From contig NZ_QUNO01000029.1 of assembly GCF_003387475.1 (NCBI RefSeq), forward strand, positions 1 to 64,000: a stretch of DNA of 64,000 nucleotides. The letters run 5' to 3'. Shown piece by piece: positions 28,869 through 49,705 of the stretch. This stretch comes from Kutzneria buriramensis. GTDB lineage: Bacteria > Actinomycetota > Actinomycetes > Mycobacteriales > Pseudonocardiaceae. Positions within the stretch are counted from its first letter, which is position 1, and every line of letters starts with the position of its first letter. The notes beneath the pieces are model-generated. The model was not told the DNA's origin. It did no database searches and saw only the letters and a list, made by a program, of their open reading frames with translations. A program made the position numbers and the translations under genes.

Positions 28869-28913
28869 TGGGTATCCCTTCGTGTCGCGCCGCGCCCACC
28901 CTGCCCCGAGCCG

Positions 28914-28932
28914 CTAAAGCCGCCACTAAGCG
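28914..28932 (-). promoter_or_regulatory. SARP-like direct repeat (11-bp period)
   Basis: CTAAAGC (28914-28920) and CTAAGCG (28926-28932) have AAGC cores 11 bp apart in the 86-bp gap upstream of the leftward ABC ATPase gene. Sequence and orientation match the repeats at 19103 and 31815. Confidence 0.5.
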
Positions 28933-28954
28933 CGTGCCACATCGTGGGACCGGT

Positions 28955-31792: not shown

Positions 31793-31814
31793 GCCGCCAT
31801 CGTGGCCGCCGGCT

Positions 31815-31832
31815 CTGAAGCCGACCTAAGCG
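31815..31832 (-). promoter_or_regulatory. SARP-like direct repeat
   Basis: CTGAAGC (31815-31821) and CCTAAGC (31825-31831) have AAGC cores 10 bp apart, 23-40 bp upstream of the leftward FkbH gene and about 135 bp upstream of the SARP gene. Orientation is the same as at 19103 and 28914. Confidence 0.45.
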
Positions 31833-31964
31833 CGAACTTCGGCGCCACCTACGCCTTTAAGTACTTTCTACGATGTGGAGCGCCCCCTGACTTGGGCAAA
31901 CTGATCCGGTCCGGGTTCTCGACAGTGCCGTCGAGCGTGCGAGCGCAGGGGTGAGGGGCACACG

Positions 31965-32726: not shown

Positions 32727-32742
32727 GCCGCCGATCGCCGTC
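32703..32742. terminator. Bidirectional hairpin terminator overlapping SARP stop
   Basis: A perfect 13-bp stem (32703-32715 with 32730-32742) and a 14-nt loop contain the SARP stop codon. It separates the convergent SARP and LAL genes. Confidence 0.55.
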
Positions 32743-32747
32743 GTCCG

Positions 32748-35645
32748 TCAGTCCACTTTGGCCATCAGATTGGCCAGTGCGGCGCGGGAGCCCACGTTGA
32801 GCTTGCGGTAGACGTGGCTGAGGTGCACGTCCACCGTGCGTGGGCTCAGCGACAGCTGTTCGGCGATCTTCTTGGTGCGGATGCCGGTGCCGGCGATCCG
32901 GGCGATCTCCCGTTCTCGCTTGGTCAGCACCGAGAGATCCACGTCCGGGACAGTCGTTTCGTCCCCGTCGACCGAGGCGGTGCCATCCTTCGGGACGATC
33001 CGCCTGCGCAGCGTCTCGGCGTCCTCATACAACACCACGGCGCCGCACTGGAGTGCGAGATCCTTGGCCAGCAACAGATGCGCGTCCGCCTCGGCGATGC
33101 GGTTGTCCAGCTCGGCGCTGTGCGCCGCGAAGGTCAGCGAGCGGATCTGGGCGCCCGCCATGCCCAGCGAACCGTACAGATCGGCGGCCTGTTGGTACAG
33201 GGCGGTCGCGGCCGCGTAGTCCTGGCCTGCGCGCACCAGGTGGCCCCGGGCGACCATGGCCGAAGCGAAGTGGTTCGGCTGGCCCACCGCGGCCGCGGCC
33301 TCGTCGCAGCGACGAACCCAGTCGGCGGTGCGGGAGTCACCGCTGTTCGCCGCAGCGTTGGCCAACATCTCGTAACACCGCGGCCGGATCAGCGGTGGAA
33401 TGCCCGGTAGGTCGGTGCCCCCGCCCGCGTGCAGCACCAGGCTGGTGCACCGGCGGTCGTCGCCCTCGATCTCCAGCACCCGCGCCAACAACAGGATTGC
33501 CTGCACGCCGAACCACCAGCCACGGGGCAGCCGCATGGCCACCGCCTGCTCGGCGTGCGCCACCGCGATCCGGCTCCCGTCCGACCGATCGATCCACGCC
33601 AGGTACGCGGATTCGAACATGATCGCCAGGTCCCGCACGTGCCGCGCGCCGATGCGGCCGGCCACCTCGGCGGCTTCGGCCGCCGCCCGCCGCGCCTCCG
33701 CGAGCCGGGCCACGGCCTGGTAGTTCTGACTCAGCCCGAGCAACGCGATGACCCGTTCGCCGTGTCGGCCCTGCTGACGGGTCAGGGAGACCTGCCGGGA
33801 CAGATGCCGTTCGGCATCGGCGAAGCGGGTCAGGATGCGTTCCACCCAGCCGAGCAGGGTGAGGCAGTCGGGGTGATCGGCCAGCTCCGCGTCCGTGAGC
33901 GTGTCCACGATCGCGGCGCAGTCCACGGCCATGCCGGTGGCCAACTGGACGTCGCCCCGGTAGCTGGCGAGCAGGCCGCGCAGCGCGAGCAGGCTGGCCG
34001 TGTCGACCCGATCGCCTTGCCGGCGGGCCAGTTCGAACACCGATGCCAGCAGTTCCTCGTCGGGCAGCTCGCTGCCGAACAGGCCGGTGACGGCCTGTCG
34101 GCGAAGCAGTCGGACGAGGGCGCCCAGATGGGCTTGCGGCTGTTCCCGCAATCCGGCCAGCTCGACCGCGAGCACGGTGCTCGCCTCGGTGTAGTTGCCG
34201 AGCAGGCACTCGACCAGGGCGCATTCGGCCACCGCGCGGACGCGCTGGCCGGCGCTGACCGCCGGGCAGTGCCGGATCAGCACCTGCAGGAGCTCACGGG
34301 CGTCAGACAGCTCTCCCGCGGCCACGAGCGCACTGGCCAGGACCAGCCGCAACTCGGTTCGTTCGGTGTCCACGGCGGTCAGCCGCAGCGCCAGCCGCAG
34401 CAGCCGAATCGCCTCCTCGGGGCGGTCGGGCAGCACATCCGCGGCGGCGCGGGCAAGGACGGTCAGGTCGTCGGGTTCGAACAACGCGATCGAGCCGGAC
34501 ACGTGCCACGCTCGGTCCTCGGCCGACGCGCCGTGCTGGGTCAGCAGTCCCAGCGCGCGGCGATGCGCGGCGTTCCGCCAGCACAGGTCCGTGCCGGCGT
34601 ACACCAGCTGGCGTAACAACGGATGCCGGAACGTGAGTACGCCGACATCGGCCGCCGAGCGCAGCACGTCCCGGTACTCCAGCCCGGCGGTCGCGGCACA
34701 CACCCGATTGCGGTCCAGCTCGGACACCGTGATCAGTGCGTTGATGTCGCAGTCGACCCCGAGCACGGCAGCGGCCTCGGCGACGAGCATTTCATCGGGG
34801 GAGAGCGTGGCGAGTTCGCTCGCGAGTAGCGCGGCGGCCAGGCCCGCCGATTCGGGTTCGCGCTGCCGCGGCAGCCGGAGCTCGGTCGGCTGATCCTGCT
34901 CGGACAGTGCCAGTAGGTACAACGGGTTGCCCTTGCTCACCTCGTGCAGATCGCGCAGGCGGTTCTCGTCCACTTTCCGCCCGTCGACGGCGAGCAGGCT
35001 CGCGGACTGGTCGACGCTCAACGCGCCGAGCTCGATCCGCTCCACCGTGCCGGCGGCCATGCCGTGCGCGAGAGCACCCGCCAGCCGAGCACACGCCTGG
35101 CGAGGGCGGTAGGCCACGACCAGCAGCAGCGGCGCGGGCACCGGATACCGCGCCAGGAAGCTGATGAATTCGGTCGATCGCCGGTCGGCCCAGTGGCAGT
35201 CGTCCAGCAGCAGGACCATCCCGTCCCTGGCCAGGTGGGTGAGCAGCGCGCGGAGAGTGGGCAGCACATCGGCGTCGGGTCCGTCGCCGGCGCGGTCCCG
35301 GGGTGCGCGCAGCAGGTGCTTGGTGATCACATCGGCCTGGCTCGCCGGCAACTCGGCGCACGCCTTCGCGATCACGTTCTCGCCGAGCGCGTTGGCCAGC
35401 GACCGGAACATGTCCTTGCGTTCGAACTCGCTGCTGCGCCCGTGACACACGGCCAGGCCGCGGCGCCGGGCCTCGGCGGCCAGTTCCGTCAGCAGCATGC
35501 TTTTGCCGATGCCGGGCTCGCCGGTCACCTGGATCGTGTGCCCGGAGCCCGGCGCCAACCGGTCGAGACCGGCCCGGAGCCGGTCGAACTCGTCGCTGCG
35601 GACGTCCGCCGCATCGTTGGTATGGCCGATCTCTGTCCCACCCAC
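32748..35645 (-). CDS. LAL-family regulator (large ATP-binding LuxR)
   Basis: This protein is about 965 aa. It has an N-terminal AAA/STAND ATPase (Walker A GEPGIGKSML, Walker B VLLLDDCHWAD), a long helical TPR-like middle, and a C-terminal LuxR helix-turn-helix (LTKREREIARIAG, then LSLSPRTVDVHLSHVYRKL). LAL proteins of this size control many polyketide clusters (PikD type). The start is GTG at 35645 (VGGTEIGHT) because a G-rich Shine-Dalgarno tract lies five bases upstream; an upstream in-frame start would add unrelated sequence. It is the last gene before the IS remnant and likely marks the right end of the tetronate cluster. Confidence 0.94.
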   Translation of the reverse strand: MGGTEIGHTNDAADVRSDEFDRLRAGLDRLAPGSGHTIQVTGEPGIGKSMLLTELAAEARRRGLAVCHGRSSEFERKDMFRSLANALGENVIAKACAELPASQADVITKHLLRAPRDRAGDGPDADVLPTLRALLTHLARDGMVLLLDDCHWADRRSTEFISFLARYPVPAPLLLVVAYRPRQACARLAGALAHGMAAGTVERIELGALSVDQSASLLAVDGRKVDENRLRDLHEVSKGNPLYLLALSEQDQPTELRLPRQREPESAGLAAALLASELATLSPDEMLVAEAAAVLGVDCDINALITVSELDRNRVCAATAGLEYRDVLRSAADVGVLTFRHPLLRQLVYAGTDLCWRNAAHRRALGLLTQHGASAEDRAWHVSGSIALFEPDDLTVLARAAADVLPDRPEEAIRLLRLALRLTAVDTERTELRLVLASALVAAGELSDARELLQVLIRHCPAVSAGQRVRAVAECALVECLLGNYTEASTVLAVELAGLREQPQAHLGALVRLLRRQAVTGLFGSELPDEELLASVFELARRQGDRVDTASLLALRGLLASYRGDVQLATGMAVDCAAIVDTLTDAELADHPDCLTLLGWVERILTRFADAERHLSRQVSLTRQQGRHGERVIALLGLSQNYQAVARLAEARRAAAEAAEVAGRIGARHVRDLAIMFESAYLAWIDRSDGSRIAVAHAEQAVAMRLPRGWWFGVQAILLLARVLEIEGDDRRCTSLVLHAGGGTDLPGIPPLIRPRCYEMLANAAANSGDSRTADWVRRCDEAAAAVGQPNHFASAMVARGHLVRAGQDYAAATALYQQAADLYGSLGMAGAQIRSLTFAAHSAELDNRIAEADAHLLLAKDLALQCGAVVLYEDAETLRRRIVPKDGTASVDGDETTVPDVDLSVLTKREREIARIAGTGIRTKKIAEQLSLSPRTVDVHLSHVYRKLNVGSRAALANLMAKVD

Positions 35646-35841
35646 TATTGCCCCCCAGCTCAGTGCGTCATCCGAATCACTGACGTGCGGCCGGCCGGCC
35701 GTGCGCGGCGTCAAGCACGGGGCGACTCCGTTGAACCACCGTGCTCTGGCCAATTTACCGAAACTCCGGGTGTTCGGAAGCCCCGCCGGCTTCATGTCAA
35801 ATAATAGAAACCTGGATCGGGCCCTTGACATTGTGCCGGAG

Positions 35842-36819: not shown

Positions 36820-37695
36820 ATGATTTATTTGGCTGTCGCTGTGGGGTTGCCGTTTGTGGCGGCGCTGGACGACGTGTTGTTCGATGTTCCGTACTGTAGT
36901 GCCGCGCAATTCCATGAGTACTATGGCGATGGCCTGCCGCCCCGTCGGTTGGGCATGGGCTGCGCGTGGCAGTCGTTCGAAGTCGCGCGGCTGGTGCGGG
37001 AGCGCAGTGGGGTCAAGGCGACCTTCCTGTACTCCGGGCGGCATGTCGCCGCCGTATATCCGCAGGCCGGCGGCATGGTTGTGCTCGATCCGTATCTGCT
37101 GCACCGTAGGCCGGTGGTGCTGCGGAAGGCCGAGGCGCGAGACGGTGTCGTGACGGTCGTCGAGGATGCCTTTCCATTCCGTACAACCGTGAACGGTGAG
37201 ACGAAGCCGTCGAAACTCAGGTTGAGCTGGACTCCCGCGGACGGCCGCCTGCACAGCGAATATCTCCGATATAGTCCGAGGCTGGGCAGGTATGTTACTT
37301 TCCGTGCTTTCGCATTCCGGCCTGGCTTGACGCTGCCGGTGTTCCCGCCGCCGCGTGCGCTTGTTCGCCGGCTGTTGTTGGACGCCGAGCAGAACAATCT
37401 GTCGATCAGGAGTGTCGATCGGGACAGTGGTCGCATGCGTGAGCTGGTGTTGCCGTTCAGTGGAAGGCCGCGCGAGCAACTGGTCGACGCGCGTTGTCTG
37501 ATCACCAGAGACAACCAGGGGGCGGTGAGTCGCGCCGGGACGGACGAATTTCGGCGCGACCTGGCCGGCATCTGCGCGTCCGTCTCCAGCAGCCCGGACG
37601 AGCTGACCGGCTACCTGCTCAGCGCCGCCGAGATCTATGTCGCGAGGGTGTCGGACGACGTTGTGGTTCCCGAGTACTCCATGGAGGACGAATGA
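36820..37695 (+). CDS. NAT/transglutaminase-like Cys-His-Asp protein, function unknown
   Basis: This protein is about 291 aa. I do not recognise a close family, but the first half has a Cys-His-Asp order like papain-fold arylamine N-acetyltransferases and transglutaminases: Cys in GMGCAWQSFE (about residue 48), His in SGRHVAAVYP and Asp in MVVLDPYLL, about 15 residues later. The C-terminal half has no recognised motif. NAT-like amide synthases release macrolactam chains in some polyketide pathways, so an acyl-transfer or release role in this operon is possible. The start is unclear: AAGGA is only one base from the ATG at 36820 but well spaced for a TTG at 36829. It is the first gene of the seven-gene operon and overlaps the next by 4 nt. 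Confidence 0.7.
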   Translation: MIYLAVAVGLPFVAALDDVLFDVPYCSAAQFHEYYGDGLPPRRLGMGCAWQSFEVARLVRERSGVKATFLYSGRHVAAVYPQAGGMVVLDPYLLHRRPVVLRKAEARDGVVTVVEDAFPFRTTVNGETKPSKLRLSWTPADGRLHSEYLRYSPRLGRYVTFRAFAFRPGLTLPVFPPPRALVRRLLLDAEQNNLSIRSVDRDSGRMRELVLPFSGRPREQLVDARCLITRDNQGAVSRAGTDEFRRDLAGICASVSSSPDELTGYLLSAAEIYVARVSDDVVVPEYSMEDE

Positions 37696-38195
37696 ATACC
37701 CGATCGTTCTTCCTGGCCGGGCTCATGCAAGGAGCCAGGTCGGGGGCCGACGTGGCCGACCAGGACTACCGGCGGCGGCTCCGCGACGTGATCGAACGGC
37801 ACGAGCCGGACGCCGTCGTGCACGACCCCGTCGAGATTCTCATCGGGTGGTTCGCCGCGGACGAGGGCCGGATCCGCGCGGCGCACGCGGCACTGGCCAA
37901 GCGGCCGGTGATCCGGCGGGACGAGCTCGATCCCGAGGTGCTGGACCTGATCGGCGGTTTCCACAAACTCACCGATCTCGCCGCCGCCTCGGACGTCTGC
38001 GTCGCGTGGTTGCCCGGCCGGGAACCGAGCATGGGCACGGCGGCCGAGATGCAGCGCGCCTACCTGGCCGGACGCACGGTCGTGGCGATCACCAAGATGC
38101 GCCAGACGCTCGCGATCCTGGCATGCTCGACGGTGATCCTGCCGGATCTCGACGCGTTCGAGCAGTGGCTGGTGTCGGCCGGGGTATCGGCGTGA
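37692..38195 (+). CDS. Nucleoside 2-deoxyribosyltransferase-like protein
   Basis: This 167-aa protein has a Rossmann-like fold of the NDT/DNPH1 type. It begins with the strand SFFLAGLMQGA, has VHDPVE in the middle and the most diagnostic block AWLPGREPSMGTAAEM, whose Glu aligns with the catalytic Glu of NDT-family enzymes, followed by GRTVVAITKM. NDT enzymes exchange bases on deoxynucleosides, and relatives hydrolyse nucleotide N-glycosidic bonds. The ATG is in an ATGA overlap with the preceding gene and the end overlaps the AMP-ligase gene, so it is an integral operon member. A nucleotide-derived building block or a repair/sensing role are both open. Confidence 0.72.
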   Translation: MNTRSFFLAGLMQGARSGADVADQDYRRRLRDVIERHEPDAVVHDPVEILIGWFAADEGRIRAAHAALAKRPVIRRDELDPEVLDLIGGFHKLTDLAAASDVCVAWLPGREPSMGTAAEMQRAYLAGRTVVAITKMRQTLAILACSTVILPDLDAFEQWLVSAGVSA

Positions 38196-39916
38196 AGCCG
38201 GGGGACACGCGGGATGTGGCGGATACGGCGCTGGGTCCTGCTCTGGCGGTGACCCGTGCCGCGGTGGTGCGACCGGACGGGATCGCCATGACGTTCGTCG
38301 ACTACTCCACCGACCGCGGCGGGCTGGAAACCAGCCTGACCTACCGGGACTTGGCGGAGCGAAGCGCCGCGGTGGCGGCCGGCCTGCTGGAGAACACCGA
38401 CCCGGGCGGGCGGGCCGCGATCCTGTGTGGACACGGCGTCGACTACGTCGCCGCGTTTCTCGGTTGCTTGCGCGCCGGCGTGATCGGCGTGCCACTGTTC
38501 GCGCCGGAGCCGTTCCGGTCGGCCGACCGGCTGCTCGACGTGATCGCCGACTGCACGCCCGAGATCGTCCTGACCAGCGGCAAACACGCTGACGCTGTGC
38601 AGGAGTTGCTCGCCTCGCCCCGGCTTTCGACACTGCCGAAGGAGGTCATGCTGGTCGATGAGACCACGCCCGACGCCCGGACGGCATTGCCCGGTCCACC
38701 TGGCGGCGACGCCGTGGCGTACCTGCAATACACCTCGGGCTCGACCAGAGCGCCGGCCGGCGTGCAGGTCACCCACCGCAACCTGGTGGCCGGCGCTGCG
38801 CAACTGGCCGGCTGGGTGCCTGCGGACGAATCGTCGAGCCTGGTCAGCTGGCTGCCGTTCTTCCATGACATGGGCCTGATGTTCTCGGTCGTGCTGCCGT
38901 TGGCGAGCATGATCCCGGTGACGTGCTTGGCTCCGCTGGCGTTCATCCAGCAACCTCGACGCTGGCTGGAGTTGCTCACCACCCACCGCGCCACCGGCAC
39001 GATGTCGCCGAACTTCGGGCTCGACCTGTGTGTCGACCGTGTCGGACCACACCAGCGCGCCGGAATCGACCTGTCCGCGCTGCGAACGCTGGGCAACGGC
39101 TCGGAACAAGTTCGTCCCAAGACGCTGTCCCGGTTCACCGAAGCCTTCCAGGACTACGGATTCCGGCACGAAGCCCACTGCCCGGGGTACGGCTTGGCCG
39201 AGGCGACCCTGGTGGTGACCGGGCACGACCCGGGGCAGCCGCCGCACATCGGCGCCTTCGACAGGCAGGAGCTCTCCGCCGGCCGGATCCGGCCGGTGAA
39301 CGTGACCGATCCGCGAGCCCAGCTGATCGTCAGCTCGGGCCGGCCGATCCGGCAGGAAGTCCGGATCGTGCACCCCCAAACAGGCGCCGAGACGGACGCC
39401 GTCGGCGAGATCCGGGTGCGCGGCAACAACGTCTGCGCCGGATACTGGAGGCAACCCGAGCGATCTGCCGAGACGTTCGGCGCAGGCAACGCCGAGGAGG
39501 CAGGATGGCTGCGCACCGGCGACCTCGGGTTCCTCAGGGACGGCAGGCTGTACGTCACGGGCAGGCTCCGTGACCTGATCATCATTGACGGCCGCAACCA
39601 TCAGCCGGCGGACATCGAGGCCACGGTCGAGGAGGCGTGCCCGCAGTTGCGTCAAGGGCGGGTGGTCGCCTTCGCCTCCGAGATCGACGACGCGGAGCAC
39701 CTTGTCGTGGTCGCCGAACTGCTGTCGCCGACTTCCACCGTCGACGTCGGCGCTATCCGGGCGGCAGTGCGCGCAAGCGTGTCCGAACGTCACGGCGTGC
39801 GCGTCCACATCGTCGCCCTGGTGCGAAAAGGCATGGTGCCGATCACCTCGAGCGGCAAACTCCGCCGGCAGGAGGCCCGGACCCGGTTCGAGGGCGGCGG
39901 GTTCGAGCGTGGCTGA
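38192..39916 (+). CDS. Fatty acyl-AMP ligase (FAAL-like)
   Basis: This protein is about 574 aa, an ANL-superfamily adenylating enzyme. The P-loop-like motif is YTSGSTRAPAGV. The segments VPLFAPEPFRS, SWLPFFHDMGLMF and MSPNFGLDLCV are typical of FAAL enzymes rather than acyl-CoA ligases. The C-terminal domain has GRNHQPADIE and SSGKLRRQEAR with the catalytic Lys. FAALs make acyl-AMP from free fatty acids and load it onto an ACP; the next gene begins with an ACP domain, an ideal acceptor. The start is GTG at 38192 within a GTGA overlap. It probably sets the lipid starter of this pathway. Confidence 0.92.
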   Translation: MKPGDTRDVADTALGPALAVTRAAVVRPDGIAMTFVDYSTDRGGLETSLTYRDLAERSAAVAAGLLENTDPGGRAAILCGHGVDYVAAFLGCLRAGVIGVPLFAPEPFRSADRLLDVIADCTPEIVLTSGKHADAVQELLASPRLSTLPKEVMLVDETTPDARTALPGPPGGDAVAYLQYTSGSTRAPAGVQVTHRNLVAGAAQLAGWVPADESSSLVSWLPFFHDMGLMFSVVLPLASMIPVTCLAPLAFIQQPRRWLELLTTHRATGTMSPNFGLDLCVDRVGPHQRAGIDLSALRTLGNGSEQVRPKTLSRFTEAFQDYGFRHEAHCPGYGLAEATLVVTGHDPGQPPHIGAFDRQELSAGRIRPVNVTDPRAQLIVSSGRPIRQEVRIVHPQTGAETDAVGEIRVRGNNVCAGYWRQPERSAETFGAGNAEEAGWLRTGDLGFLRDGRLYVTGRLRDLIIIDGRNHQPADIEATVEEACPQLRQGRVVAFASEIDDAEHLVVVAELLSPTSTVDVGAIRAAVRASVSERHGVRVHIVALVRKGMVPITSSGKLRRQEARTRFEGGGFERG

Positions 39917-41399
39917 CGTGCAACGGTGGCTGATCGAACGGCTCGCGGCGCACGTCGGTGTGCCGCCCGACCGGATCGACACCGACCGGCCGTTCGCTGA
40001 CTACGGCATCAGCTCGCGGGACGCCGTGGGGATCGCCGGTGAGCTGGAAGACCTCCTGGACCGGCCGATCGAGCCGATCGCCCTGTGGCGACAGCCGACG
40101 ATTCGCAAGCTCGCGGACTCCCTGTCCTCGGCCCACGCACCGCCGAAGACGGGGACGGCAAGGGCTGAGTCGGCGGTCGCCGTCATCGGTATCGGCTGCC
40201 GGTTGCCCGGTGGCGTCGACTCACCGGCCGAGCTCTGGCGATTGCTGATGGCCGGTGATGACGTCGTCACCGCAGTGCCAACCGATCGGTGGGAGGCCTA
40301 TCCCGTCCCGGACGGGACATCGACCGCTGGTGGTTTCCTCACCCGGGTCTACGACTTCGACGCGGAGTTCTTCGGGATCTCGCCCCGGGAAGCCGTCGAG
40401 ATGGATCCGCAGCAGCGCATCCTGCTCGAAGTCGTGTGGGAGGCACTGGAGCACGCGGGAATCCCGCCGGACAGCCTGGCTGGCAGCCGGACCGGTGTGT
40501 TCGTCGGGGCGGCCACCAACGACCACGGCCGGGAACGACTGGCCGACCTGGCCGACATCAGCGGGTGGACCGGAACCGGGGCGGCGGCGAGCGTGCTGGC
40601 CAACCGGGTGTCTTACGTGCTCGACCTGCGGGGCCCGAGTCTGACCGTGGACACGGCTTGTTCGTCGTCACTGGTGGCGCTGCATCTGGCGAAGCGCAGC
40701 CTGGATTCGCGGGAATGCGACCTGGCGATCGTCGCCGGGGTGAACCTGATCCTCTCCCCGGCTGTCACGGTGAACTTCGACCGGTCGGGTGCGTTGGCGC
40801 CGGGCGGGCGTTGCCGTCCGTTCGACGCGGCTGCGGACGGGTACGTCCGAAGCGAGGGCTGCGCCGCGGTCGTGCTGACAAGGCCTGAGGGCTCCGACGG
40901 TCCACACGCGACAGTGGTAGCCAGCGCCGTCAACCAGGACGGCCGGTCGAACGGCCTGATGGCGCCCAATCCGTCGGCGCAGCAGGAGCTACTCGCCGAG
41001 GTGTACTGGGGTATTCCACGCGAAAAGGTCTGCTATGTCGAGGCGCATGGCACCGGGACGCCTCTCGGCGATCCCATCGAGGCGACGGCGCTGGGGTCCG
41101 TGCTGGGTGAGGATCGGGCGCGTCCGCTGCTGATCGGCTCGATCAAGTCGAACCTCGGCCATCTGGAGGCGGCAGCGGGCATCGCCGGTCTGATCAAGGC
41201 GGTGCTGTCGCTCGACCACGGACACATCCCGCCGACACTGCATTACCACAGCCCGAACCCGCACATCGACCTCGATCGGCTGGGGCTAGCCGTGGCGGCC
41301 AAGCCCTCGCCGCTGCCGGCGGGCGGCGGCGCGCTGATCGGGGTCAGCTCCTTCGGATTCGGCGGCGCGAACGCGCACGCTGTGCTCCGCCAACCGTGA
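39909..41399 (+). CDS. ACP-KS didomain polyketide synthase
   Basis: This protein is 496 aa. N-terminal ACP (about 1-80) with the phosphopantetheine site in [11 protein letters not shown], then a complete ketosynthase (about 90-495): active Cys in [10 protein letters not shown], His in EAHGTGT and KSNLGH. It has no AT. FAAL-dependent synthases often start with such an ACP, which takes the acyl-adenylate and feeds the adjacent KS. The extender must come from the AT-DH-KR-ACP protein at 42255, so the two proteins together make one split module with an oxidoreductase gene between them. The GTG start overlaps the FAAL gene by 8 nt. Confidence 0.94.
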
Positions 41400-41415
41400 G
41401 ACACGAGGTTCCACC

Positions 41416-42258
41416 ATGCATTTCGGTGTGATGATGCTCGTCACAGACTTCTCTTTGGACGCGGCGTCGGTGGCCAGGGCGGCCGAGGACCGTGGTTTCG
41501 AGTCGTTCTTCGTCCCCGAACACACCCATGTGCCGGTGAGCATGGCCAGTCCACACCCCGGCGGTGTGGCGGTCCCGCCGGAGACCCTGCAAGGCGTCGA
41601 CCCCTTCATCACGTTGGCCCTCGCCGCCGGGGCCACCACCCGGTTGCGGCTCGGCACAGGCATCTGCCAGGTGCCCATCCGCGATCCGATCCAGTTGGCC
41701 AAGCAGGTGGCCAGCCTGGACGTCGTGTCCGATGGCCGGTTCCTGTTCGGCGTGGGCGCCGGTTGGAACCACGAGGAGATGCTGAACCACGGTGTCGACC
41801 CGCGGACCCGGACCGCTCGGTTGCTGGAACACGTGGTGGTGATGAAGCGTGTCTGGGCCGAGCACGAGGCGTCGTTCGCCGGCCGGTTCGTCAAGTTCGA
41901 TCCGCTGTGGTCGGTGCCGAAACCGGTGCAGCGCCCGCACCCGCCCATTCTCTACGGCGGCAACGGTCCCCGCGCGATCGACCGGGTGCTGGCGCTGGGC
42001 GCCGAGTGGATGCCCTGGCATGCGTTGCTCGGGGATGACTTCGCCGACCGCGTCGCCGAGCTACGGCACCGGGCCGCGGTGGCTGGGCGTATGTCCGTGC
42101 CGGTCACGGTGTTCGGGGTGCCGGCCGACGAGGAGATCATCGACATGTACCGCGAAATCGGCGTCACCCGGTGCGTGTTTCCGCTGCCGCCCGCGTCGGC
42201 CGGGGAAGTCATGTCCATGATGGACTGGTACGCGGAATTGGCCTGGGAGGTTGAATGA
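41416..42258 (+). CDS. F420-type luciferase-like oxidoreductase
   Basis: This 280-aa LLM-family TIM barrel has FESFFVPEHTHVPVS, LRLGTGICQVPIRDPIQLA and GVGAGWNHEEMLNHG, followed by PILYGGNGPRAIDR. This pattern is closest to the 'probable F420-dependent oxidoreductase' group, which lacks a dedicated flavin reductase; none is encoded in this operon. It sits inside a split PKS module and its stop overlaps the next gene in an ATGA junction, so it is likely tied to the chemistry on the growing chain. The cofactor assignment is by similarity only. Confidence 0.88.
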   Translation: MHFGVMMLVTDFSLDAASVARAAEDRGFESFFVPEHTHVPVSMASPHPGGVAVPPETLQGVDPFITLALAAGATTRLRLGTGICQVPIRDPIQLAKQVASLDVVSDGRFLFGVGAGWNHEEMLNHGVDPRTRTARLLEHVVVMKRVWAEHEASFAGRFVKFDPLWSVPKPVQRPHPPILYGGNGPRAIDRVLALGAEWMPWHALLGDDFADRVAELRHRAAVAGRMSVPVTVFGVPADEEIIDMYREIGVTRCVFPLPPASAGEVMSMMDWYAELAWEVE

Positions 42259-45200
42259 TCGGCCTCTTCCCGATATCCGCCCGATCGCCCCAGTCGCTGC
42301 GATCCAACGCGGAACGCCTGGCGCACTGGCTGGAGAACGAGGGCGCCGAGGTCTCGTTGCCGGATGTCGGCTACACCTTGGCCCGGCGGCGAGCCCATCT
42401 CACCGAACGGTTGACCGTCGTCGCCGACGATCGCGAGCAGTTGATCGACCGGCTGCGCCGCGGCGACTACGACCGCGCGACGTCGGCCGCACCGCAGGCC
42501 GGTGCTGTCTTCGTGTTCTCCGGCCACGGCTCGCAGTGGACGGGCATGGGCCGGGAACTGATGACCTGCGAACCCGTGTTCGCCGGCCTGGTCGAGGAGC
42601 TCGAAGACGTCTTCGCCCACGAGTGCGGCCGGGCGCTGTCGGAGCTGATGACCGGTGAGGATCTCGGTTCCGCCAGCATGGCATTGGTTCAGCCGACGCT
42701 GTTCGCCACGCAGGTGGGGTTGGCGAGGACGTGGCAGCACTACGGGATCGAACCGGCGGCGGTCATCGGGCACTCGATGGGTGAGGTTGCCGCGGCAGTG
42801 GTGGCAGGTGCGTTGTCGGCTGCCGATGGAGCGCGGGTGATCTGCCGGCGTTCGGCGCTGATCGAACGGCGGCTGACCGATCACGGTGCTGCCGCCCTTG
42901 TGGAGTTGCCCGCCGCGAAGGTGATGCGGATGATCGGCCCCGACGGCGTGCTCGACCTCGCCGTGTACAGCTCGACCAGGGCGTCCGTGGTGACGGGACG
43001 TCCCGAGGATGTGGAACGGTTCATCGACGGCTGCGAGGCCGTCGGGATCATCGCGCGTCGGGTGCCGGGGGTGCGGTTCGCCGCGCACAGCCGGCACGTC
43101 GACTCCATCATCGACGAGTTGACCACGAGCCTCGGCGATATCGAACCAAGTGGCCTGGTGACCCCCTGTTATGGCACGGCGTTGCCGGGCGCGCCGCCGT
43201 CGTTCGATGCGGGTTACTGGGCGGACAACTTGCGCAATCCGGTTCGGTTCACGCAGGCGTTGCAGGCCGCGGCGGCGGACGGCTACCGGTGTTTCATCGA
43301 GATCTCACCTCATCCGGTCGTGGTGCCCGCCATTGTGGACACATTGGGCGACTCCGGGATCACCGGCGCCTCCGCGCTCTGCTCACTCAGGCGGGAGCAG
43401 CCCGCGCGGCCGACTCTGCTGGCCAACATCGGCCGGGCGCATTGCCGTGGGCTGACCGTCGACTGGGCAACCGTGCACCCCGTCGGCCGGCTAGCCGAGT
43501 TGCCCACGATGGCGTGGAACCGGAAGCGGTACAGGGCGGTCATCCGGCGTTCTGACGACCTGCATCCGCTGCTCGGAGTGCATGTCAAGCTGACCGACCG
43601 GCACATCTGGCAGGCAACTGTGGACCTCGACCACCTGCCTTGGCTTGCCGACCATCGAGTGAACACTCGAGCTGTGCTCCCAGGTTCGGCCTTTGTCGAG
43701 ATGGTCTCCGCCGCTGCCTGCGCGGCATGGGAAGTGCCGATTGGCGCGGTCGAGATGTCCGATCTGGAGTTCCGGCGCCTGCTGCCGTTGTCACGGCCGG
43801 TGACACTGACGACCACCATGTCCCTGTCGGGCGACACCGCGAATGTGGAGATCAGCACGGACTCCGCCGTGCACGCGACCGCAACCGTCCGGCGGGCAGA
43901 CCACCAGGCCGGTAGCGACATCGAAGGTGACATCGCGGCTGTGACCGAGTGGAGGGGCGCCGGCCCTCTCTATGAGCGGCTGCGTTCGACCGGGCAGGAA
44001 CACGGCCCCGCGTTCGCGGGGGTGAACGCCGTGTCCGACGGCTGGTCCACAGTGTCGTGGCCGGACGAGTTGCCTCAGGACGGCCGGTTCACGCTGCATC
44101 CGGCGATGCTCGATGCCTGCATGCACGGGCTTGCCGCGCTGATCGCCGGGGAGAGGACCGGGACAGTTCTGCCGGTCGGGATAGGGAGCGTGCGTGCTCG
44201 GCGCTCACTTGGCCGTGACCTGGTCTGCCGGGCGAGTGTCAAGTCCGCGCAGGACAGCGACACGCTCGCGACCGTTGACGTGTACGAGAAGTCGGGGGCA
44301 TGGATCGCGACACTTGACGGAGTGCGGTTGCGTGAACTTCACGGCTCCCCGTCTTGGGAAGAACTGCTGTACGCCGTTGAGTGGGTCGATTCGCCGCGGA
44401 CCAGTGGACAGACCGGACGGGTCCTCCGAATGCCGGACGGAGTCGACGGCCGGCAACTGGTGCTCGACCTCGCGACGACTCTGCGGGAGATCCTCACAGC
44501 CGGGCCGCCCTACGACCGTGTGATCGTCGCGATCGACGCGGCGAATCCGGAGCACGCCGCCCTGGCCGGTCTGGTTCGAACGCTCCGGCACGAGCATCCG
44601 GAGCTCCCGCTGTCCCTGGTGGACGACCCGGACGGCACCGCGGACATCGCGATGACCACGGAAGACGAGGTCACATACCGAGACGGCAACCGTCGGGCGG
44701 CGCGGCTCATGCCCGTGGCGCTTCCCGCGCGAACGGACTCCGTGCTGGTCCGGCCGGATGGCGCTTACATCGTGACGGGAGGCACCCGCGGCCTCGGACT
44801 GCGGACCGCGGAATGGCTCGCGGAACAGGGCGCCGGCACGATCCTCCTGTGTGGCCGGTCAAGCCCTACGGTCGATGTCGCCAACGCTCTGGTGCTGACC
44901 GGCGACATCACAGAAACCGCCGAACGGGCCGTCGCGCTCGCTGAGAGCAGAGGGCACCGTCTGCGAGGTGTGGTGCACGCCGCCGGCGTGCTGGACGACG
45001 CTCTGCTGGAGGATCTCGACGATGACCGAATCCAGCGCGTGTGGCATCCCAAGGTCCTCGGCGCCCAGCGTCTGCGGGCCGCTCTGGGCGAGGGTTCGCT
45101 CGACTGGTGGGTCAGCTATTCGTCGCTGGCGTCGGTGATCGGTGCCCCCGGACAGGCCGCGCACGCGGCGGCAAACGCGTGGCTCGACGCGTTCGGAACC

Positions 45201-45842
45201 CAGTTGCGCGGCGAGGGCATCCGGGCGATCACCGTCAACTGGGGCCGTTGGTCGGAGATCGGCTCGGTGACCGGCAAGCAGGTCGCCGGGCTTGCCGGGA
45301 TACCGACCAGCACGGGCATGGCGGTCCTCGGGGAGATCCTGGCGAGGGATATCGCCCAGGTCAGTGTGGCAAGGTTCGACAGCGCCGGGCTCGCCGCGGC
45401 GTACCCGCACATCGCCCGGTCGGACTTCTTCGCTCATTTCCACCCCACAGCACGGTTCTCCGTCGACTCGCTTGCCGGGCACAACGACCAGGACCGCCGC
45501 CGGATGGTCGGCACACGGGTGATCGCCCGTGCCGGGGCGGTGCTCGGGTTCGAACCGGGCGAACTGCCCGAAGACCGGCCGCTGGTGCACGCCGGGCTGG
45601 ATTCGCTGGGCGCGGTGAAGATCAAGAACGCGATCCGGGAGGACTTCGCCGTGGAGATCCCGGTCGCCCGCCTGCTTGGCGGCCACACGGTCGCGGAGTT
45701 GACGGACGACGTGATGAACGAGCTCGGGAACGCGACCGGGGACCCGACCGCTGACTCGGCCGTGGCCTCGGCAGCGGCCGACCGTGCGCGCACCCGTGCG
45801 ACGCTGACGGCGAAACGCCGCGCGGTGAGGAGGCGGTCGTGA
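42255..45842 (+). CDS. PKS AT-DH-KR-ACP protein (split-module partner)
   Basis: This protein is 1,195 aa. It starts in the KS-AT linker and carries AT (GHSMGE; specificity motif reads RFAAHSRHVD, nearer the methylmalonyl YASH type than HAFH), DH (HRVNTRAVLP, where the usual Gly is Thr; DACMH intact), KR (GGTRGLG, LDD motif) and ACP (GLDSLGAV). The KR catalytic Tyr position reads GQAAHAAAN, so His stands where Tyr is expected; Ser (SYSS) and Asn remain. There is no KS. KR and DH may be impaired or adapted. It pairs with the KS of the 39909 gene. Coupled by ATGA and GTGA overlaps on both sides. Confidence 0.93.
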   Translation: MIGLFPISARSPQSLRSNAERLAHWLENEGAEVSLPDVGYTLARRRAHLTERLTVVADDREQLIDRLRRGDYDRATSAAPQAGAVFVFSGHGSQWTGMGRELMTCEPVFAGLVEELEDVFAHECGRALSELMTGEDLGSASMALVQPTLFATQVGLARTWQHYGIEPAAVIGHSMGEVAAAVVAGALSAADGARVICRRSALIERRLTDHGAAALVELPAAKVMRMIGPDGVLDLAVYSSTRASVVTGRPEDVERFIDGCEAVGIIARRVPGVRFAAHSRHVDSIIDELTTSLGDIEPSGLVTPCYGTALPGAPPSFDAGYWADNLRNPVRFTQALQAAAADGYRCFIEISPHPVVVPAIVDTLGDSGITGASALCSLRREQPARPTLLANIGRAHCRGLTVDWATVHPVGRLAELPTMAWNRKRYRAVIRRSDDLHPLLGVHVKLTDRHIWQATVDLDHLPWLADHRVNTRAVLPGSAFVEMVSAAACAAWEVPIGAVEMSDLEFRRLLPLSRPVTLTTTMSLSGDTANVEISTDSAVHATATVRRADHQAGSDIEGDIAAVTEWRGAGPLYERLRSTGQEHGPAFAGVNAVSDGWSTVSWPDELPQDGRFTLHPAMLDACMHGLAALIAGERTGTVLPVGIGSVRARRSLGRDLVCRASVKSAQDSDTLATVDVYEKSGAWIATLDGVRLRELHGSPSWEELLYAVEWVDSPRTSGQTGRVLRMPDGVDGRQLVLDLATTLREILTAGPPYDRVIVAIDAANPEHAALAGLVRTLRHEHPELPLSLVDDPDGTADIAMTTEDEVTYRDGNRRAARLMPVALPARTDSVLVRPDGAYIVTGGTRGLGLRTAEWLAEQGAGTILLCGRSSPTVDVANALVLTGDITETAERAVALAESRGHRLRGVVHAAGVLDDALLEDLDDDRIQRVWHPKVLGAQRLRAALGEGSLDWWVSYSSLASVIGAPGQAAHAAANAWLDAFGTQLRGEGIRAITVNWGRWSEIGSVTGKQVAGLAGIPTSTGMAVLGEILARDIAQVSVARFDSAGLAAAYPHIARSDFFAHFHPTARFSVDSLAGHNDQDRRRMVGTRVIARAGAVLGFEPGELPEDRPLVHAGLDSLGAVKIKNAIREDFAVEIPVARLLGGHTVAELTDDVMNELGNATGDPTADSAVASAAADRARTRATLTAKRRAVRRRS

Positions 45843-48800
45843 ACGCCGGGGAATCCATCGCTGTCATCGGGATGGCAGGTCGATTTCCGAAGGCCGGTGA
45901 CCTCGACGAATACTGGGCGAACCTCGTGGCCGGCCGGGACTGTCTCGACGACCTAGGCGAAGGTGAGTTGCGGGCCAACGGTGTTCCCGAGGGTGTGCTG
46001 CGCAACCCCGACTACGTCCGCAGGGCGGCCAGTCTCGCCGGGTTTGCCGAGTTCGACGCGGAGTTCTTCGGTTTCGCACCGGGAATGGCCGCGGCGCTTG
46101 ACCCACAGCAACGGTTGTTCCTCGAAAGCTGTTGGCACGCTTTGGAGGACGCGGCCTACCTGCCGAGTGTTGTCGACGGCGCGATCGGTGTGTTCGGCGC
46201 CGGTTCGTTCACCGGTTACCTACAGCACACCTTGCTGTCGCAGCGCGACCCGCGGCAGTTCCTCGACACGGGTACCTCCACCGCAGTCGTCGAGGCATTG
46301 ACCATGGGGGACAACAACTTCTTTGCCACCAGGGTGGCGCACACGCTGAACCTCCACGGTCCCGCGCTCACCGTGCAGACCGCGTGCTCCAGTTCGCTGG
46401 TCGCGGTACATCTGGCGTGCCAGAGCTTGCTCTTGGGGGAGTGCGACATGGCGTTGGCCGGCGGAATGACGGTGAAGGTGCCGCACCGGGTCGGTTATGT
46501 CCACGACATCGACTCGATGATGTCCGCGGACGGTCGGTGCAGGCCCTTCGACGCGGCGGCGAACGGCACGGTCTTCGGCAGCGGCGGTGGCGCCGTTGTG
46601 CTCAAGAGGCTGTCGGACGCGGTGGCGGACAAGGACAATGTCCGTGCGGTCATCCGTGGCAGTGCCACGAACAACGACGGTTCGCTGAAGATGGGGTTTG
46701 CGGCGCCCAGCGTGCGGATGCAGTCCGCGGTGGTCGCCGAAGCTCTCGCCGTGGCCGGGTTCGAACCACAGGACATCGGATACGTCGAAGCGCACGGAAC
46801 GGGCACCACGCTTGGTGATCCGGTGGAAATGGCCGCTCTGCGGACCGCGCTGCCGACTGCCGAGGACTGCGTGGTGAGCTCGGTCAAGGGCAACATCGGC
46901 CACCTGGAAGCGGCCTCGGGGATCGCCGGGCTCATCAAGGCCGTGCTCGCGCTGGAGAACGGCTGGATCCCCGGTACCGCACACTTCACCGAACCGAATC
47001 GGGAACTGAGGCTCGATGACTCGCCGTTCGTCGTCCGAGCAGACGGCACCGGTTGGGGAGAGCGGCCGAAGATCGCCGGAGTGACCTCGTTGGGCATGGG
47101 CGGCACCAACGCGCATGTGGTCGTCGCGGAAACGCCACGCCGTCCGGAACGGCCCGCGGACCAACGTCCCAGTGTGCTCGTGCTCAGCGCGCGGAACCAG
47201 AACGCGCTCACGGATATGCGGCAAGCCCTGGCTGCCCACCTTCGACGTAAGCCGGAGATCCCGCTGGCAGACGTGGCGCACAGTCTGTCTGTCGGCAGGC
47301 ACCAGTTCGAGCACCGCTTCGCGGTCATGGCGTCGACAGCGGCGGAAGCGGTTGACCTGCTGGAGTCGGGGCAAGGCCTGGCGGACCCGCAACCCGTGCC
47401 GGCAAACCCGGACGCGATGCGCGTTTCCCTACCCGGCTATGCTTTCCAGCGAGAACACCATTGGATAGAGCCCCGTGCGACCGCTGTCGTTCAGGCCAGT
47501 CCGGCAATTCCGGGCGACCACCGCGACGTGCTCGCCGATCTATGGCGGGAGACACTCGGTGTCGACGACGTCGCGCCGAACGACAGCTTCTTCGAGCAGG
47601 GCGGCGACTCCGTCATGGCCACGGCATTTGTGTCACGGGCGCGGACACAGGGAATCGACATGCGCCCCAAGGATCTGTTCGACAACTCGACGTTCGATTC
47701 GCTTGTCGCCCACGTCGAAGCCAGGACCGCGCCGGTCGCGCAACCGGTGGAGGACCGCCGCATCCCCTTGACACCGACGCAGTTGTGGTATCTGAGTGCT
47801 TCCGGGCATCGACAGACACCGTTGCTGTTCCGGCTCGCGCCCGACTTGGATCGAGCGATCGTGCAACGGGCTGTCGCGGCGGTCACCGCACGGCACGATG
47901 CGTTGGGCCTGGTCCCGACAATGTCGCATGGCGTGTGGTACCAGGAGAGGCGCGAGCTGCGGAGAGAACTGCCATTGGTCACCGCTGACGTCGACAGCCT
48001 GAAGACAGCCGATGCGGTGCTGGACCTCGTCGGCGAAACAGCCTTCGTGGACACGGTTGACGCCGTCTTCCTTGCCGTGGTGGTAAATCAGGTGGATCGA
48101 GCGTCCGCGCGGATCCTCACCGAAGAGCTCATCACGGCGTGCGATCATCTCCTCGCCGGAAACGCGGTGACGCTGCCCGAGACGACGGCCTGGGCGCGAT
48201 GGGCCCGGTACACGCAGGACCTGGTGAACGACCAGAGCCTGTTCGCCGAGCTGGACCATTGGACGGCGACTCTCGACGTTCCACCCGACGGTCTGTCCGT
48301 GTCGAATCCTGCTGGACCATGGCAGGTGCTCAGGTACGCCGCCAAGGCTGAACCGCTGACCGCCGTTCGGCGCCGCGCACAGGCCAAATGGGCAGAACTC
48401 CTGCTCACCGCCATGACCTCGGCCTGGCATCGGCTCACCGGACGAACCACGATGACTGTGGACGTGCTGGGCAGCGTCCGGCAGGCAAACCCGGCGATGA
48501 GCCTCGACAGGTCAGTGGGACTGTACTCGGCGATCTACCCGGTCACCTTCACCGCGGCGGAGAACAGGCTCGACGCCGTCCGGCAGTCCTGGCGAGATGT
48601 TCCCCGGCACGGCCTGGGTTATGGCGTGCTTCGCCACCTCTACGGCCCGACGGCAGAGCGCTTCCGCGACCTACCCGAGCCCAGCGTGTTGTTCGCTGCA
48701 CAAGGGGCAGTAGGCAGGCCCGTCCGCGCGTCCCGTCAACCGCTTTCCCGGATGGCTCTGGACGTTGCCCCGACCGGTCGCCACCCTGTCGAGGTGCGTT

Positions 48801-48925
48801 GCCACACCGCCGACGGCGCATTCGTCGTCGAGTGGTGGCACGATCCGGACCGGTGCGACACTGCTCTGCTCGCCGCCTGGAATGACCAGACCGCGGTCGT
48901 GCTTGACGCGCTGGCATCGCCATGA
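45839..48925 (+). CDS. AT-less KS-carrier-condensation-like megasynthase
   Basis: This protein is 1,028 aa. KS (about 1-435) with TVQTACSSSL, EAHGTGT and VKGNIGH; a short KS-AT linker and the post-AT strand PGYAFQREHHW but no AT between; carrier domain with FEQGGDSVMA (about 565-635); then a condensation/epimerisation-like domain (about 640-1028) beginning LTPTQLWYL and containing the late motif VGLYSAIYPV and HGLGYGVLRHLYG. The HHxxxDG motif is degraded: DRASARIL aligns with DG.S..IL, but the two His positions are Val. The terminal domain may be non-catalytic, a recruiting platform, or a changed catalyst. The AT of the 42255 protein may act in trans. GTG start in a GTGA overlap. Confidence 0.9.
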   Translation: MNAGESIAVIGMAGRFPKAGDLDEYWANLVAGRDCLDDLGEGELRANGVPEGVLRNPDYVRRAASLAGFAEFDAEFFGFAPGMAAALDPQQRLFLESCWHALEDAAYLPSVVDGAIGVFGAGSFTGYLQHTLLSQRDPRQFLDTGTSTAVVEALTMGDNNFFATRVAHTLNLHGPALTVQTACSSSLVAVHLACQSLLLGECDMALAGGMTVKVPHRVGYVHDIDSMMSADGRCRPFDAAANGTVFGSGGGAVVLKRLSDAVADKDNVRAVIRGSATNNDGSLKMGFAAPSVRMQSAVVAEALAVAGFEPQDIGYVEAHGTGTTLGDPVEMAALRTALPTAEDCVVSSVKGNIGHLEAASGIAGLIKAVLALENGWIPGTAHFTEPNRELRLDDSPFVVRADGTGWGERPKIAGVTSLGMGGTNAHVVVAETPRRPERPADQRPSVLVLSARNQNALTDMRQALAAHLRRKPEIPLADVAHSLSVGRHQFEHRFAVMASTAAEAVDLLESGQGLADPQPVPANPDAMRVSLPGYAFQREHHWIEPRATAVVQASPAIPGDHRDVLADLWRETLGVDDVAPNDSFFEQGGDSVMATAFVSRARTQGIDMRPKDLFDNSTFDSLVAHVEARTAPVAQPVEDRRIPLTPTQLWYLSASGHRQTPLLFRLAPDLDRAIVQRAVAAVTARHDALGLVPTMSHGVWYQERRELRRELPLVTADVDSLKTADAVLDLVGETAFVDTVDAVFLAVVVNQVDRASARILTEELITACDHLLAGNAVTLPETTAWARWARYTQDLVNDQSLFAELDHWTATLDVPPDGLSVSNPAGPWQVLRYAAKAEPLTAVRRRAQAKWAELLLTAMTSAWHRLTGRTTMTVDVLGSVRQANPAMSLDRSVGLYSAIYPVTFTAAENRLDAVRQSWRDVPRHGLGYGVLRHLYGPTAERFRDLPEPSVLFAAQGAVGRPVRASRQPLSRMALDVAPTGRHPVEVRCHTADGAFVVEWWHDPDRCDTALLAAWNDQTAVVLDALASP

Positions 48926-48976: not shown

Positions 48977-49624
48977 TCACTGCCGGTCGCCAGCCGGCGT
49001 GACGGCGGGGCAGGTGGCCGTGCCGACCACGACGGGGCGCACCATCGGCGGCGCCTTGGGCATCGTGTGGTGGCCGAGTTCCCCGACTGTGAAGCCGGCG
49101 TCCCGGATCGACGTCACGGTCGGGCGGTTGCACTCGCAGCCCACGACCAACCGGTTCAGCCAGTTCAGGCGGTCCTGCGTCCGGGCCAGCCCGGGCTCCG
49201 CGGACCGGACGTGTTCCATGAACAGCAGCCGGCCGTCGGAGCGCAGCACGCGCCGGATCTCGCGCAGCGCCCGCTGCTGGTCGGTGACCCCGCACAGCAC
49301 CAGCGAGGAGACGACGGTGTCGAAGGTGTTGTCCTCGAACGGCAAATCCTCGGCTGGGGCCTGCAACACGGTCACCGGACGGTCGGCCGTCTCGGCGCGG
49401 CGCTTGAGGCGGCGCAGCATCGACACGTCCGGCTCGGTGACGGTCACGGACCGCACGTTCGGAGTGTAGGCGGCGAGGCTCGCGCCGGTCCCGCCGCCGA
49501 TCTCCAGCACGTCGCCGCTCGCGTCGGCGAGCAGCCTGTCACGCAGCCCGGTCAGCAGCAGCTGCTCGGCGTCGGCCATGAGCCGGTCGTAGCCGGCGGC
49601 GAACAACACACTACGGATTCCCAT
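48977..49624 (-). CDS. Class I SAM-dependent methyltransferase (UbiE/type 11-like)
   Basis: This protein is about 215 aa. It has motif I DVLEIGGGTGASLAAYTP, the acidic VTVTEPD, then PAEDLPFEDNTFDTVVSSLVLC and the VLRSDGRLLFMEHV segment, typical of type 11 methyltransferases related to phospholipid and ubiquinone methylases. The ATG at 49624 is preferred because GAGG lies just upstream; an upstream ATG at 49687 would add 21 residues. The substrate is unknown. It has its own leader and may not belong to the operon that converges on it. Confidence 0.9.
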   Translation of the reverse strand: MGIRSVLFAAGYDRLMADAEQLLLTGLRDRLLADASGDVLEIGGGTGASLAAYTPNVRSVTVTEPDVSMLRRLKRRAETADRPVTVLQAPAEDLPFEDNTFDTVVSSLVLCGVTDQQRALREIRRVLRSDGRLLFMEHVRSAEPGLARTQDRLNWLNRLVVGCECNRPTVTSIRDAGFTVGELGHHTMPKAPPMVRPVVVGTATCPAVTPAGDRQ

Positions 49625-49705
49625 GTCTGCCTCGCTTTCCTCGATCTCCAGGAAGTCGAAGCTAGGCGGATTCGCCGCCGTGGACATGAGGCAGTTGCCC
49701 CATAG

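What the first reader, a model, noticed from the sequence alone, without database searches (positions are those of the whole stretch)
36820..48925. Unrecognised seven-gene FAAL/PKS/condensation operon with NAT-like and NDT-like enzymes
Seven genes are linked almost entirely by 4-8 nt overlaps: NAT/transglutaminase-like, NDT-like, FAAL, ACP-KS, F420-type LLM, AT-DH-KR-ACP, KS-ACP-C-like. The set suggests a fatty acid activated by FAAL, extended once or twice, oxidised or reduced by the LLM, and joined or released by the odd C-like or NAT-like protein. The NDT-like member has no obvious place in lipid or polyketide assembly and may bring in a nucleoside- or ribosyl-derived part. I know no described pathway with this combination.
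Basis: partly seen in the sequence, partly recalled or inferred. Interest (0 to 1): 0.85.

Follow-up and report, generated by a model that had tools for sequence, protein, structure and literature searches.

The report
Acyl-to-ribosylamine cassette with PKS genes
A rare actinobacterial gene cluster joins a fatty-acid/polyketide assembly line to a tightly coupled enzyme pair that looks built to put acyl chains onto a ribose-bound nitrogen, a chemistry I could not find described for such pathways.

Summary
In detail: seven same-strand genes at 36820-48925, five of six junctions overlapping by 4-8 nt. All seven recur in the same order in three other actinobacteria (one with two extra genes inside), and as a relic in a fourth. 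But it is not one indivisible seven-gene invention. Its core is W1 (a new family with arylamine N-acetyltransferase fold and Cys-His-Asp triad), W2 (nucleoside-deoxyribosyltransferase/MilB/DNPH1 fold) and a FAAL plus carrier. W1 and W2 are neighbours in 14 of 14 loci kept, each with a possible 4-nt overlap, in four settings: this PKS, an AMP-ligase/acyl-dehydrogenase set, NRPS clusters and a minimal set. W2 has, by motif and spacing, the residues of enzymes acting on ribose 5'-phosphate N-glycosides. Two of the 14 genomes have a second PurF (phosphoribosylamine maker), both times between W2 and FAAL. Best reading: FAAL/carrier (here PKS-extended) delivers an acyl thioester, W1 passes it to a ribose-linked amine, W2 makes or breaks the C1'-N bond. 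The chemistry is inferred, not shown. W7's C-like domain lacks its catalytic histidines, so release by it is unlikely. My paper searches listed no described equivalent.

The parts
36820..37695 (+). W1: divergent NAT-fold protein (Cys48-His75-Asp90), proposed acyltransferase/amide synthase; TTG 36829 is an alternative start better spaced from the AAAAAGGA before it
   Evidence: No Pfam/NCBIfam match; AlphaFold2 pLDDT 83.5, only high-probability PDB matches are three arylamine N-acetyltransferases; triad invariant in 13 of 13 intact homologues, window included
37692..38195 (+). W2: NDT/MilB/DNPH1-fold N-glycosidase or ribosyltransferase-like protein (Phe7, Ser113, Glu119)
   Evidence: PF05014 matched by 14 of 14 at E<=0.1, best E 0.00041, the window copy below cut-off; AlphaFold2 pLDDT 84.6, the 19 PDB matches at E<=0.001 are NDT or DNPH1 chains (7m5h so named); residues invariant 14 of 14
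38192..39916 (+). W3: fatty acyl-AMP ligase (FAAL)
39909..41399 (+). W4: ACP-KS, Pks13-like N-terminal layout; upstream half of a split PKS module
   Evidence: GTG start 39909; KS Cys/His/His motifs present
41416..42258 (+). W5: F420-type LLM oxidoreductase (TIGR03619), inserted between the KS and AT halves
   Evidence: 252.6 bits, cut-off 166.9
42255..45842 (+). W6: KS-AT linker, AT, DH, KR (Tyr replaced by His), ACP; downstream half of the split module
45839..48925 (+). W7: KS - (AT deleted) - PCP - C-like domain without HHxxxDG
   Evidence: the Saccharothrix copy keeps an AT remnant with GAGVGE
48980..49687 (-). Convergent class I methyltransferase, possibly associated (uncertain)
   Evidence: 43% identical over 174 aa to the methyltransferase inside the Saccharothrix cassette, where another methyltransferase directly follows W7; none seen at this place in A. 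siamensis or G1346

Best explanation
The operon makes an acyl chain and attaches it to, or uses, a ribose-bound nitrogen. Steps: (1) W3 adenylates a carboxylic acid and loads the ACP of W4. (2) The split module W4-KS/W6 extends it once; W7-KS may extend again using W6's AT in trans, because W7's own AT is gone. W5 does an F420-dependent redox step. (3) W1 takes the acyl group onto Cys48 and passes it to an amine, as the NAT-fold amide synthases RifF and GdmF do. (4) The amine is a 5-phosphoribosylamine-type nitrogen, made by a dedicated PurF in two relatives and by the household PurF or by W2 elsewhere. W2 forms, exchanges or cleaves the C1'-N bond through Glu119. End product: an N-acyl (phospho)ribosylamine, or the primary amide left after W2 removes the ribose. 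Shown: gene content, gene order, predicted folds, motif conservation, W1-W2 pairing, PurF placement. Inferred: every reaction, the substrates and the product.
For: W1 and W2 adjacent in 14 of 14 kept loci, each with an in-frame ATG/GTG at -4 relative to the W1 stop. In two searches of 345 genomes of the Actinacidiphila family, full-length W1 and full-length W2 occur in the same 7; the telling part is that no full-length W2 turned up without W1, since the W2 profile was itself built with those 7. W1 and W2 trees show the same main groups, with weak support at several W2 nodes. A FAAL gene in the same gene run in 14 of 14 (truncated in the Kibdelosporangium relic; at the far end of the run in the 5 dehydrogenase-type loci). 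NAT fold and triad for W1; PMC11213898 and PMC11903869 (passages read) describe NAT-fold amide synthases releasing polyketides. W2: Phe7 stands at the start of an F-L-A-G motif, as F17 in MilB's F-L-(G/A)-(G/A) motif, the residue that sets ribo over deoxyribo preference (also AvNRT Phe7: PMC4081090, PMC7308715, PMC10603095, passages); Ser113 lies six residues before Glu119, as S98/E104 in DNPH1 and S97/E103 in MilB, S98 binding the phosphate; the aligned NDT chain 7m5h has Asp there. A second PurF over the NCBIfam cut-off in exactly 2 of 14 cassette genomes, both between W2 and FAAL.
Against: No enzyme has been assayed. PurF is absent from 12 of 14 cassettes, including the window; the G1264 copy is barely over its cut-off (354.9 vs 350 bits). 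The two cassette PurFs are only 43.3% identical to each other, no closer than to household PurFs (42.5-45.0%), so one shared origin is not shown. W2 has no invariant Asp where DNPH1 D80 would fall (positions 93-95), so ordinary base hydrolysis is doubtful. PMC11903869 (passages) suggests CoA or pantetheine thioesters rather than ACP-bound ones for amide synthases. Fold matches are moderate (query TM 0.42-0.45 for W1's three NAT hits, 0.46-0.59 for W2's 19). The W6 KR has His for Tyr in 3 of 4 PKS-type copies, so the reduction state is unclear.
Confidence: 0.4

Rival explanations
1. W2 is a CMP/AMP N-glycosidase (MilB-like) that frees a nucleobase, and W1 acylates an amine of that base or of a derived aminosugar; the product is an acylated nucleoside or base.
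For: W2 carries MilB-type Phe7, Ser113 and Glu119 (PMC4081090 and PMC10603095 passages); NATs are known for acylating aromatic amines (PMC11213898 passages).
Against: No nucleobase-modifying gene among the seven; does not explain PurF between W2 and FAAL; no conserved Asp for base protonation at the counted position.
Confidence: 0.2
2. The PurF paralogue is a self-resistance copy of the target: the product is an acyl-ribosylamide antimetabolite of purine synthesis; W1/W2 make it, PurF only protects.
For: Second copies of a target inside biosynthetic clusters are a known sign of self-resistance (recalled); PurF paralogue in 2 of 14 only.
Against: Placed mid-operon between W2 and FAAL in both; CGV start and PRPP-loop motifs kept (their roles recalled).
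Confidence: 0.15
3. W1 and W2 are accessory: W1 a proof-reading thioesterase, W2 an AMP hydrolase that pulls FAAL's adenylation forward by removing AMP.
For: Both accompany a FAAL gene in all 14 loci; W2 resembles NMP glycosidases.
Against: The main text of the FAAL review PMC11837247, searched for six terms, holds no nucleoside, deoxyribosyl or arylamine term, so such partners are not a known part of FAAL systems there; does not explain PurF.
Confidence: 0.12
4. W7's C-like domain releases the chain by condensation; W1/W2 only tailor.
For: W7 ends in PCP-C.
Against: HHxxxDG absent in 4 of 4 copies; 9 of 14 W1-W2 loci show no W7.
Confidence: 0.05

Closest known systems
RifF/GdmF-type amide synthases (NAT fold) of ansamycin pathways
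   Same: NAT fold, Cys-His-Asp triad, PKS gene neighbourhood, proposed amide-forming release
   Different: W1 is not detected by the NAT Pfam or NCBIfam models and is paired with W2; the described cases form macrolactams through an aryl amine (PMC11213898, PMC11903869 passages)
MilB/BlsM/BcmB NMP N-glycosidases and DNPH1/RCL
   Same: Fold, Glu nucleophile, Phe for ribose, Ser for 5'-phosphate by position
   Different: No conserved Asp at the counted DNPH1 D80 position; no MilA-type partner among the seven genes; partnered with FAAL/ACP
FAAL-PKS loading systems (FadD32/Pks13 type)
   Same: FAAL plus ACP-KS, Pks13-like N-terminal order
   Different: Module split by an F420 LLM gene; no thioesterase among the seven; W1-W2 pair added
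First two steps of purine synthesis (PurF, PurD; recalled)
   Same: PurF paralogue in two cassettes; acylation of phosphoribosylamine as the proposed analogue of glycinamide ribotide formation
   Different: Acyl group would come from a carrier thioester through W1, not from an ATP-grasp acyl phosphate

Membership tests
Arylamine N-acetyltransferase / amide synthase (W1) | Match to the family profile | tested here: not met
   0 of 13 homologues match a NAT or transglutaminase Pfam family at E<=0.1
Arylamine N-acetyltransferase / amide synthase (W1) | NAT fold | tested here: met
   1w6f, 4nv8, 4bgf at probability 0.99-1.00, E 7.5e-4 to 3.3e-3; the other 47 listed are below 0.5
Arylamine N-acetyltransferase / amide synthase (W1) | Cys-His-Asp triad | tested here: met
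   C48, H75, D90 invariant 13 of 13; role by motif, not superposed
Arylamine N-acetyltransferase / amide synthase (W1) | Acyl transfer to an amine | not testable with these tools
   needs enzyme assay
NDT / NMP N-glycosidase (W2) | Family fold | tested here: met
NDT / NMP N-glycosidase (W2) | Pfam PF05014 over the gathering score | tested here: not met
   14 of 14 hit it at E<=0.1, best E 0.00041; the window copy scores 19.3 vs 28.8 bits at E 0.0013
NDT / NMP N-glycosidase (W2) | Catalytic Glu | tested here: met
   E119 14 of 14
NDT / NMP N-glycosidase (W2) | Second catalytic carboxylate (DNPH1 D80) | tested here: inconclusive
   No invariant Asp at 93-95; position counted, not superposed
FAAL (W3) | FAAL-type sequence | tested here: met
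   (best models are FAAL, below their cut-offs); rejection of CoA not tested
Type I PKS modules (W4, W6, W7) | KS active residues | tested here: met
   EAHGTGT and GHLEAA motifs in both KS; TACSSSL read in W4 and W7
Type I PKS modules (W4, W6, W7) | AT GHSxGE in W6 | tested here: met
   GHSMGE in window, A. siamensis, Saccharothrix; GQSMGE in G1346
Type I PKS modules (W4, W6, W7) | Active KR in W6 (Tyr) | tested here: not met
   His for Tyr in window, A. siamensis, G1346; Tyr kept in Saccharothrix
NRPS condensation domain (W7 C-terminus) | HHxxxDG | tested here: not met
   absent 4 of 4
F420-dependent LLM (W5) | TIGR03619 over cut-off | tested here: met
   252.6 vs 166.9 bits
PurF (relatives G828 and G1264 only) | TIGR01134 over cut-off | tested here: met
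   370.6 and 354.9 vs 350 bits

The most novel reading that the evidence does not exclude
The W1-W2-FAAL-carrier cassette is a thioester-based counterpart of the first steps of purine synthesis: an ACP-bound acyl chain is coupled to 5-phosphoribosylamine by a new NAT-fold family, giving acyl-ribotides or, after W2 removes the ribose, primary amides; the cassette has been plugged into PKS, dehydrogenase and NRPS pathways.
Probability: 0.3. Interest if true: 0.85.

Novelty: new variant of a known kind. Interest (0 to 1): 0.62.

Why it matters
It names a small, rare, portable enzyme pair with a clear test, and would add a route from carrier-bound acyl chains to ribosyl amides or primary amides. 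It also gives a marker (overlapping W1-W2) for mining a set of clusters that family models miss, because W1 matches no Pfam or NCBIfam model here and W2 scores below its own.

Tried and rejected
W1 by sequence against PDB, Pfam and NCBIfam: nothing relevant. Viral contigs: 8 stretches matched a pattern, none confirmed. Plasmids: no match. A weak W1 hit in G442 (E 6.7e-4, 56 aa) lies opposite a gene on the other strand and was dropped. G940 (W1 fragment with a stop) and G889, G1031, G1130 (W2 pieces only) were treated as relics and left out of the 14. The idea that W5 replaces a lost KR was dropped: Saccharothrix has W5 and a KR with its Tyr. PMC3397433, the one paper holding nucleoside 2-deoxyribosyltransferase, polyketide synthase and gene cluster, concerns a sponge cosmid where that gene is an ORF at the end of the listed table (passages). 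The PurF tree is unrooted and cannot show that the cassette PurFs share one origin. Paper searches for a described equivalent: 0 papers; 2; 168, 25 listed; 5; 9; 48, 20 listed; 1; 36, 20 listed; by title and abstract start none described one. The YopM match of the W2 profile is a chance sum over repeats (best single stretch 5.5 bits). In one search the output was cut inside W6 and the window's W4 row was read in the wrong frame; both were re-read.

Full report
What is there. Seven + strand genes fill 36820-48925 with overlaps of 4, 4, 8, then a 16 nt gap, then 4 and 4 nt. Domains: W3 FAAL, W4 ACP-KS, W5 F420-type LLM, W6 AT-DH-KR-ACP, W7 KS-PCP-C. W6 starts with a KS-AT linker, so W4's KS and W6 read as one PKS module cut in two with the LLM gene in the cut. 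GC3 of the operon frames scored is 0.77-0.87 (W2 not scored apart), lower than most flanking genes (about 0.87-0.96, one at 0.81), in line with a horizontally acquired unit.

The two small genes. W1 has no Pfam or NCBIfam match at E<=0.01. Its AlphaFold2 model (pLDDT 83.5, pTM 0.81) finds three arylamine N-acetyltransferases at probability 0.99-1.00 and nothing else above 0.5 among the 50 hits listed. C48, H75 and D90 are invariant in 13 of 13 intact homologues. W2 hits PF05014 below threshold; its model (pLDDT 84.6) finds NDT and DNPH1 chains as the 19 matches at E<=0.001 (the top entry's own title only says conserved protein, its molecule name is nucleoside 2-deoxyribosyltransferase). Glu119 is invariant 14 of 14. 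Phe7 (14 of 14) starts an F-L-A-G type motif, as F17 does in MilB, where NDTs have Tyr; that Phe goes with ribose rather than deoxyribose (passages of PMC4081090, PMC7308715, PMC10603095). Ser113 lies six residues before the Glu, as S98/E104 in DNPH1 and S97/E103 in MilB, S98 binding the phosphate, where the aligned NDT chain 7m5h has Asp. No invariant Asp lies near the DNPH1 D80 position. These positions come from motif and spacing, not from superposed coordinates.

Relatives. Homologues of W1 are rare. Counting the genome searched around, W1 is found in 2 of 150 relatives, 3 of 397 of the order (one spurious), 1 of 396 of the phylum; 4 loci from the one scan of GTDB genome contigs; 8 of 345 in the Actinacidiphila family, one a fragment; 3 of 300 in the Actinoplanes family. 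Only a few best candidates per genome are scored in these searches, so misses are possible. Fourteen loci were kept. Type A (all seven genes in order): window, Actinoplanes siamensis, Saccharothrix NRRL B-16348 (two genes inserted), G1346; a relic in Kibdelosporangium philippinense (W1 with an internal deletion, W2, FAAL start). Type B (FAAL, two acyl-CoA dehydrogenase-like, ACP, DoxX-like, second AMP ligase, W1, W2): Actinacidiphila paucisporea, and by tblastn G962, G945, G877, G957; a variant without the dehydrogenases in G066. Type C (W1-W2-FAAL near NRPS genes, with a halogenase-like gene, SbnA/SbnB-like diaminopropionate genes, P450; these names by eye): G934, G1164. Minimal type: G1264 with W1-W2-PurF-FAAL-ACP, and an FMO-like gene just upstream (by eye). 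A possible W2 start at -4 from the W1 stop is present in 14 of 14. In the 345-genome searches full-length W1 and W2 occur in the same 7 genomes; since the W2 profile included those 7, the informative part is that the other W2 matches, in G889, G1031 and G1130, are pieces; in G1031 W1 was not found and W2 is damaged in an otherwise type C cluster. W1 and W2 trees share the main groups, with weak support at several W2 nodes.

PurF. Saccharothrix carries, between W2 and FAAL, a full-length PurF and a methyltransferase. G1264 carries a PurF between W2 and FAAL. All 14 cassette genomes have a PurF at 514.8-532.7 bits, taken as the household copy; a second one over the cut-off of 350 occurs only in these two genomes and only in the cassette (370.6 and 354.9 bits). 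Both keep the CGV motif with the presumed glutaminase Cys and the PRPP loop (roles recalled). This is the strongest hint that the cassette handles a phosphoribosyl nitrogen. It is not shown that the two copies share one origin (43.3% identity).

Assembly line details. W7 lacks an AT in window and A. siamensis and, from the spacing of its motifs and the length of the match, in G1346; Saccharothrix keeps a remnant with GAGVGE in place of GHSxGE. The W7 C domain lacks HHxxxDG in 4 of 4. The W6 KR has His for Tyr in 3 of 4. So W7's C domain is more likely a docking platform, as inactive X domains are (recalled), and W1 the releasing enzyme.

Mechanism. FAAL and carrier, here extended by the PKS, give an acyl thioester; W1 passes it to nitrogen; W2 works on the ribose C1'-N bond; PurF, where present, supplies phosphoribosylamine. 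Precedent for W1: RifF and GdmF amide synthases (passages of PMC11213898 and PMC11903869), though the GdmF paper suggests CoA or pantetheine thioesters rather than ACP-bound ones. The reactions themselves are inference.

Known or new. The main text of the FAAL review PMC11837247, searched for six terms, holds no nucleoside, deoxyribosyl, arylamine, acyl-CoA dehydrogenase or Actinoplanes term and two of luciferase in another sense. Searches listed no paper that by title and abstract start describes this combination; three of the lists were capped, only open-licence papers are held and no BGC database could be searched. I rate it a new variant of a known kind (FAAL-PKS pathway) built on an enzyme pair that I did not find described.

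Noticed in passing
window 3-14458 and 27312-35831: A second biosynthetic region: a large type I PKS cut by the window edge (3 KS, 3 AT stretches), KAS III-like gene, acyltransferase, hydrolase, ABC transporter part, thioesterase, SARP-type (BTAD) and LuxR-type regulators.
   Followed up: partly
L091 (G1031) 2-8505: A natural broken cassette: halogenase-like and diaminopropionate-like genes (by eye) and a FAAL-like gene, W1 not found and W2 in pieces.
   Followed up: partly
L050/L053 (G934) and L051 (G1164): Undetermined NRPS clusters with halogenase-like, SbnA/SbnB-like, P450 and (G934) KS/CLF-like genes near W1-W2-FAAL, named by eye; product unknown.
   Followed up: no
L005 (G066) 1203-1697: A reading frame of a repeated peptide resembling a translated CRISPR array, near a protein at 2-1075 that looks like an HD-domain (Cas3-like) one; by eye only.
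   Followed up: no
L012 and L028 (A. paucisporea): Hydrogenase maturation (HypD/HypE-like) genes, named by eye, directly precede the type B cassette.
   Followed up: no
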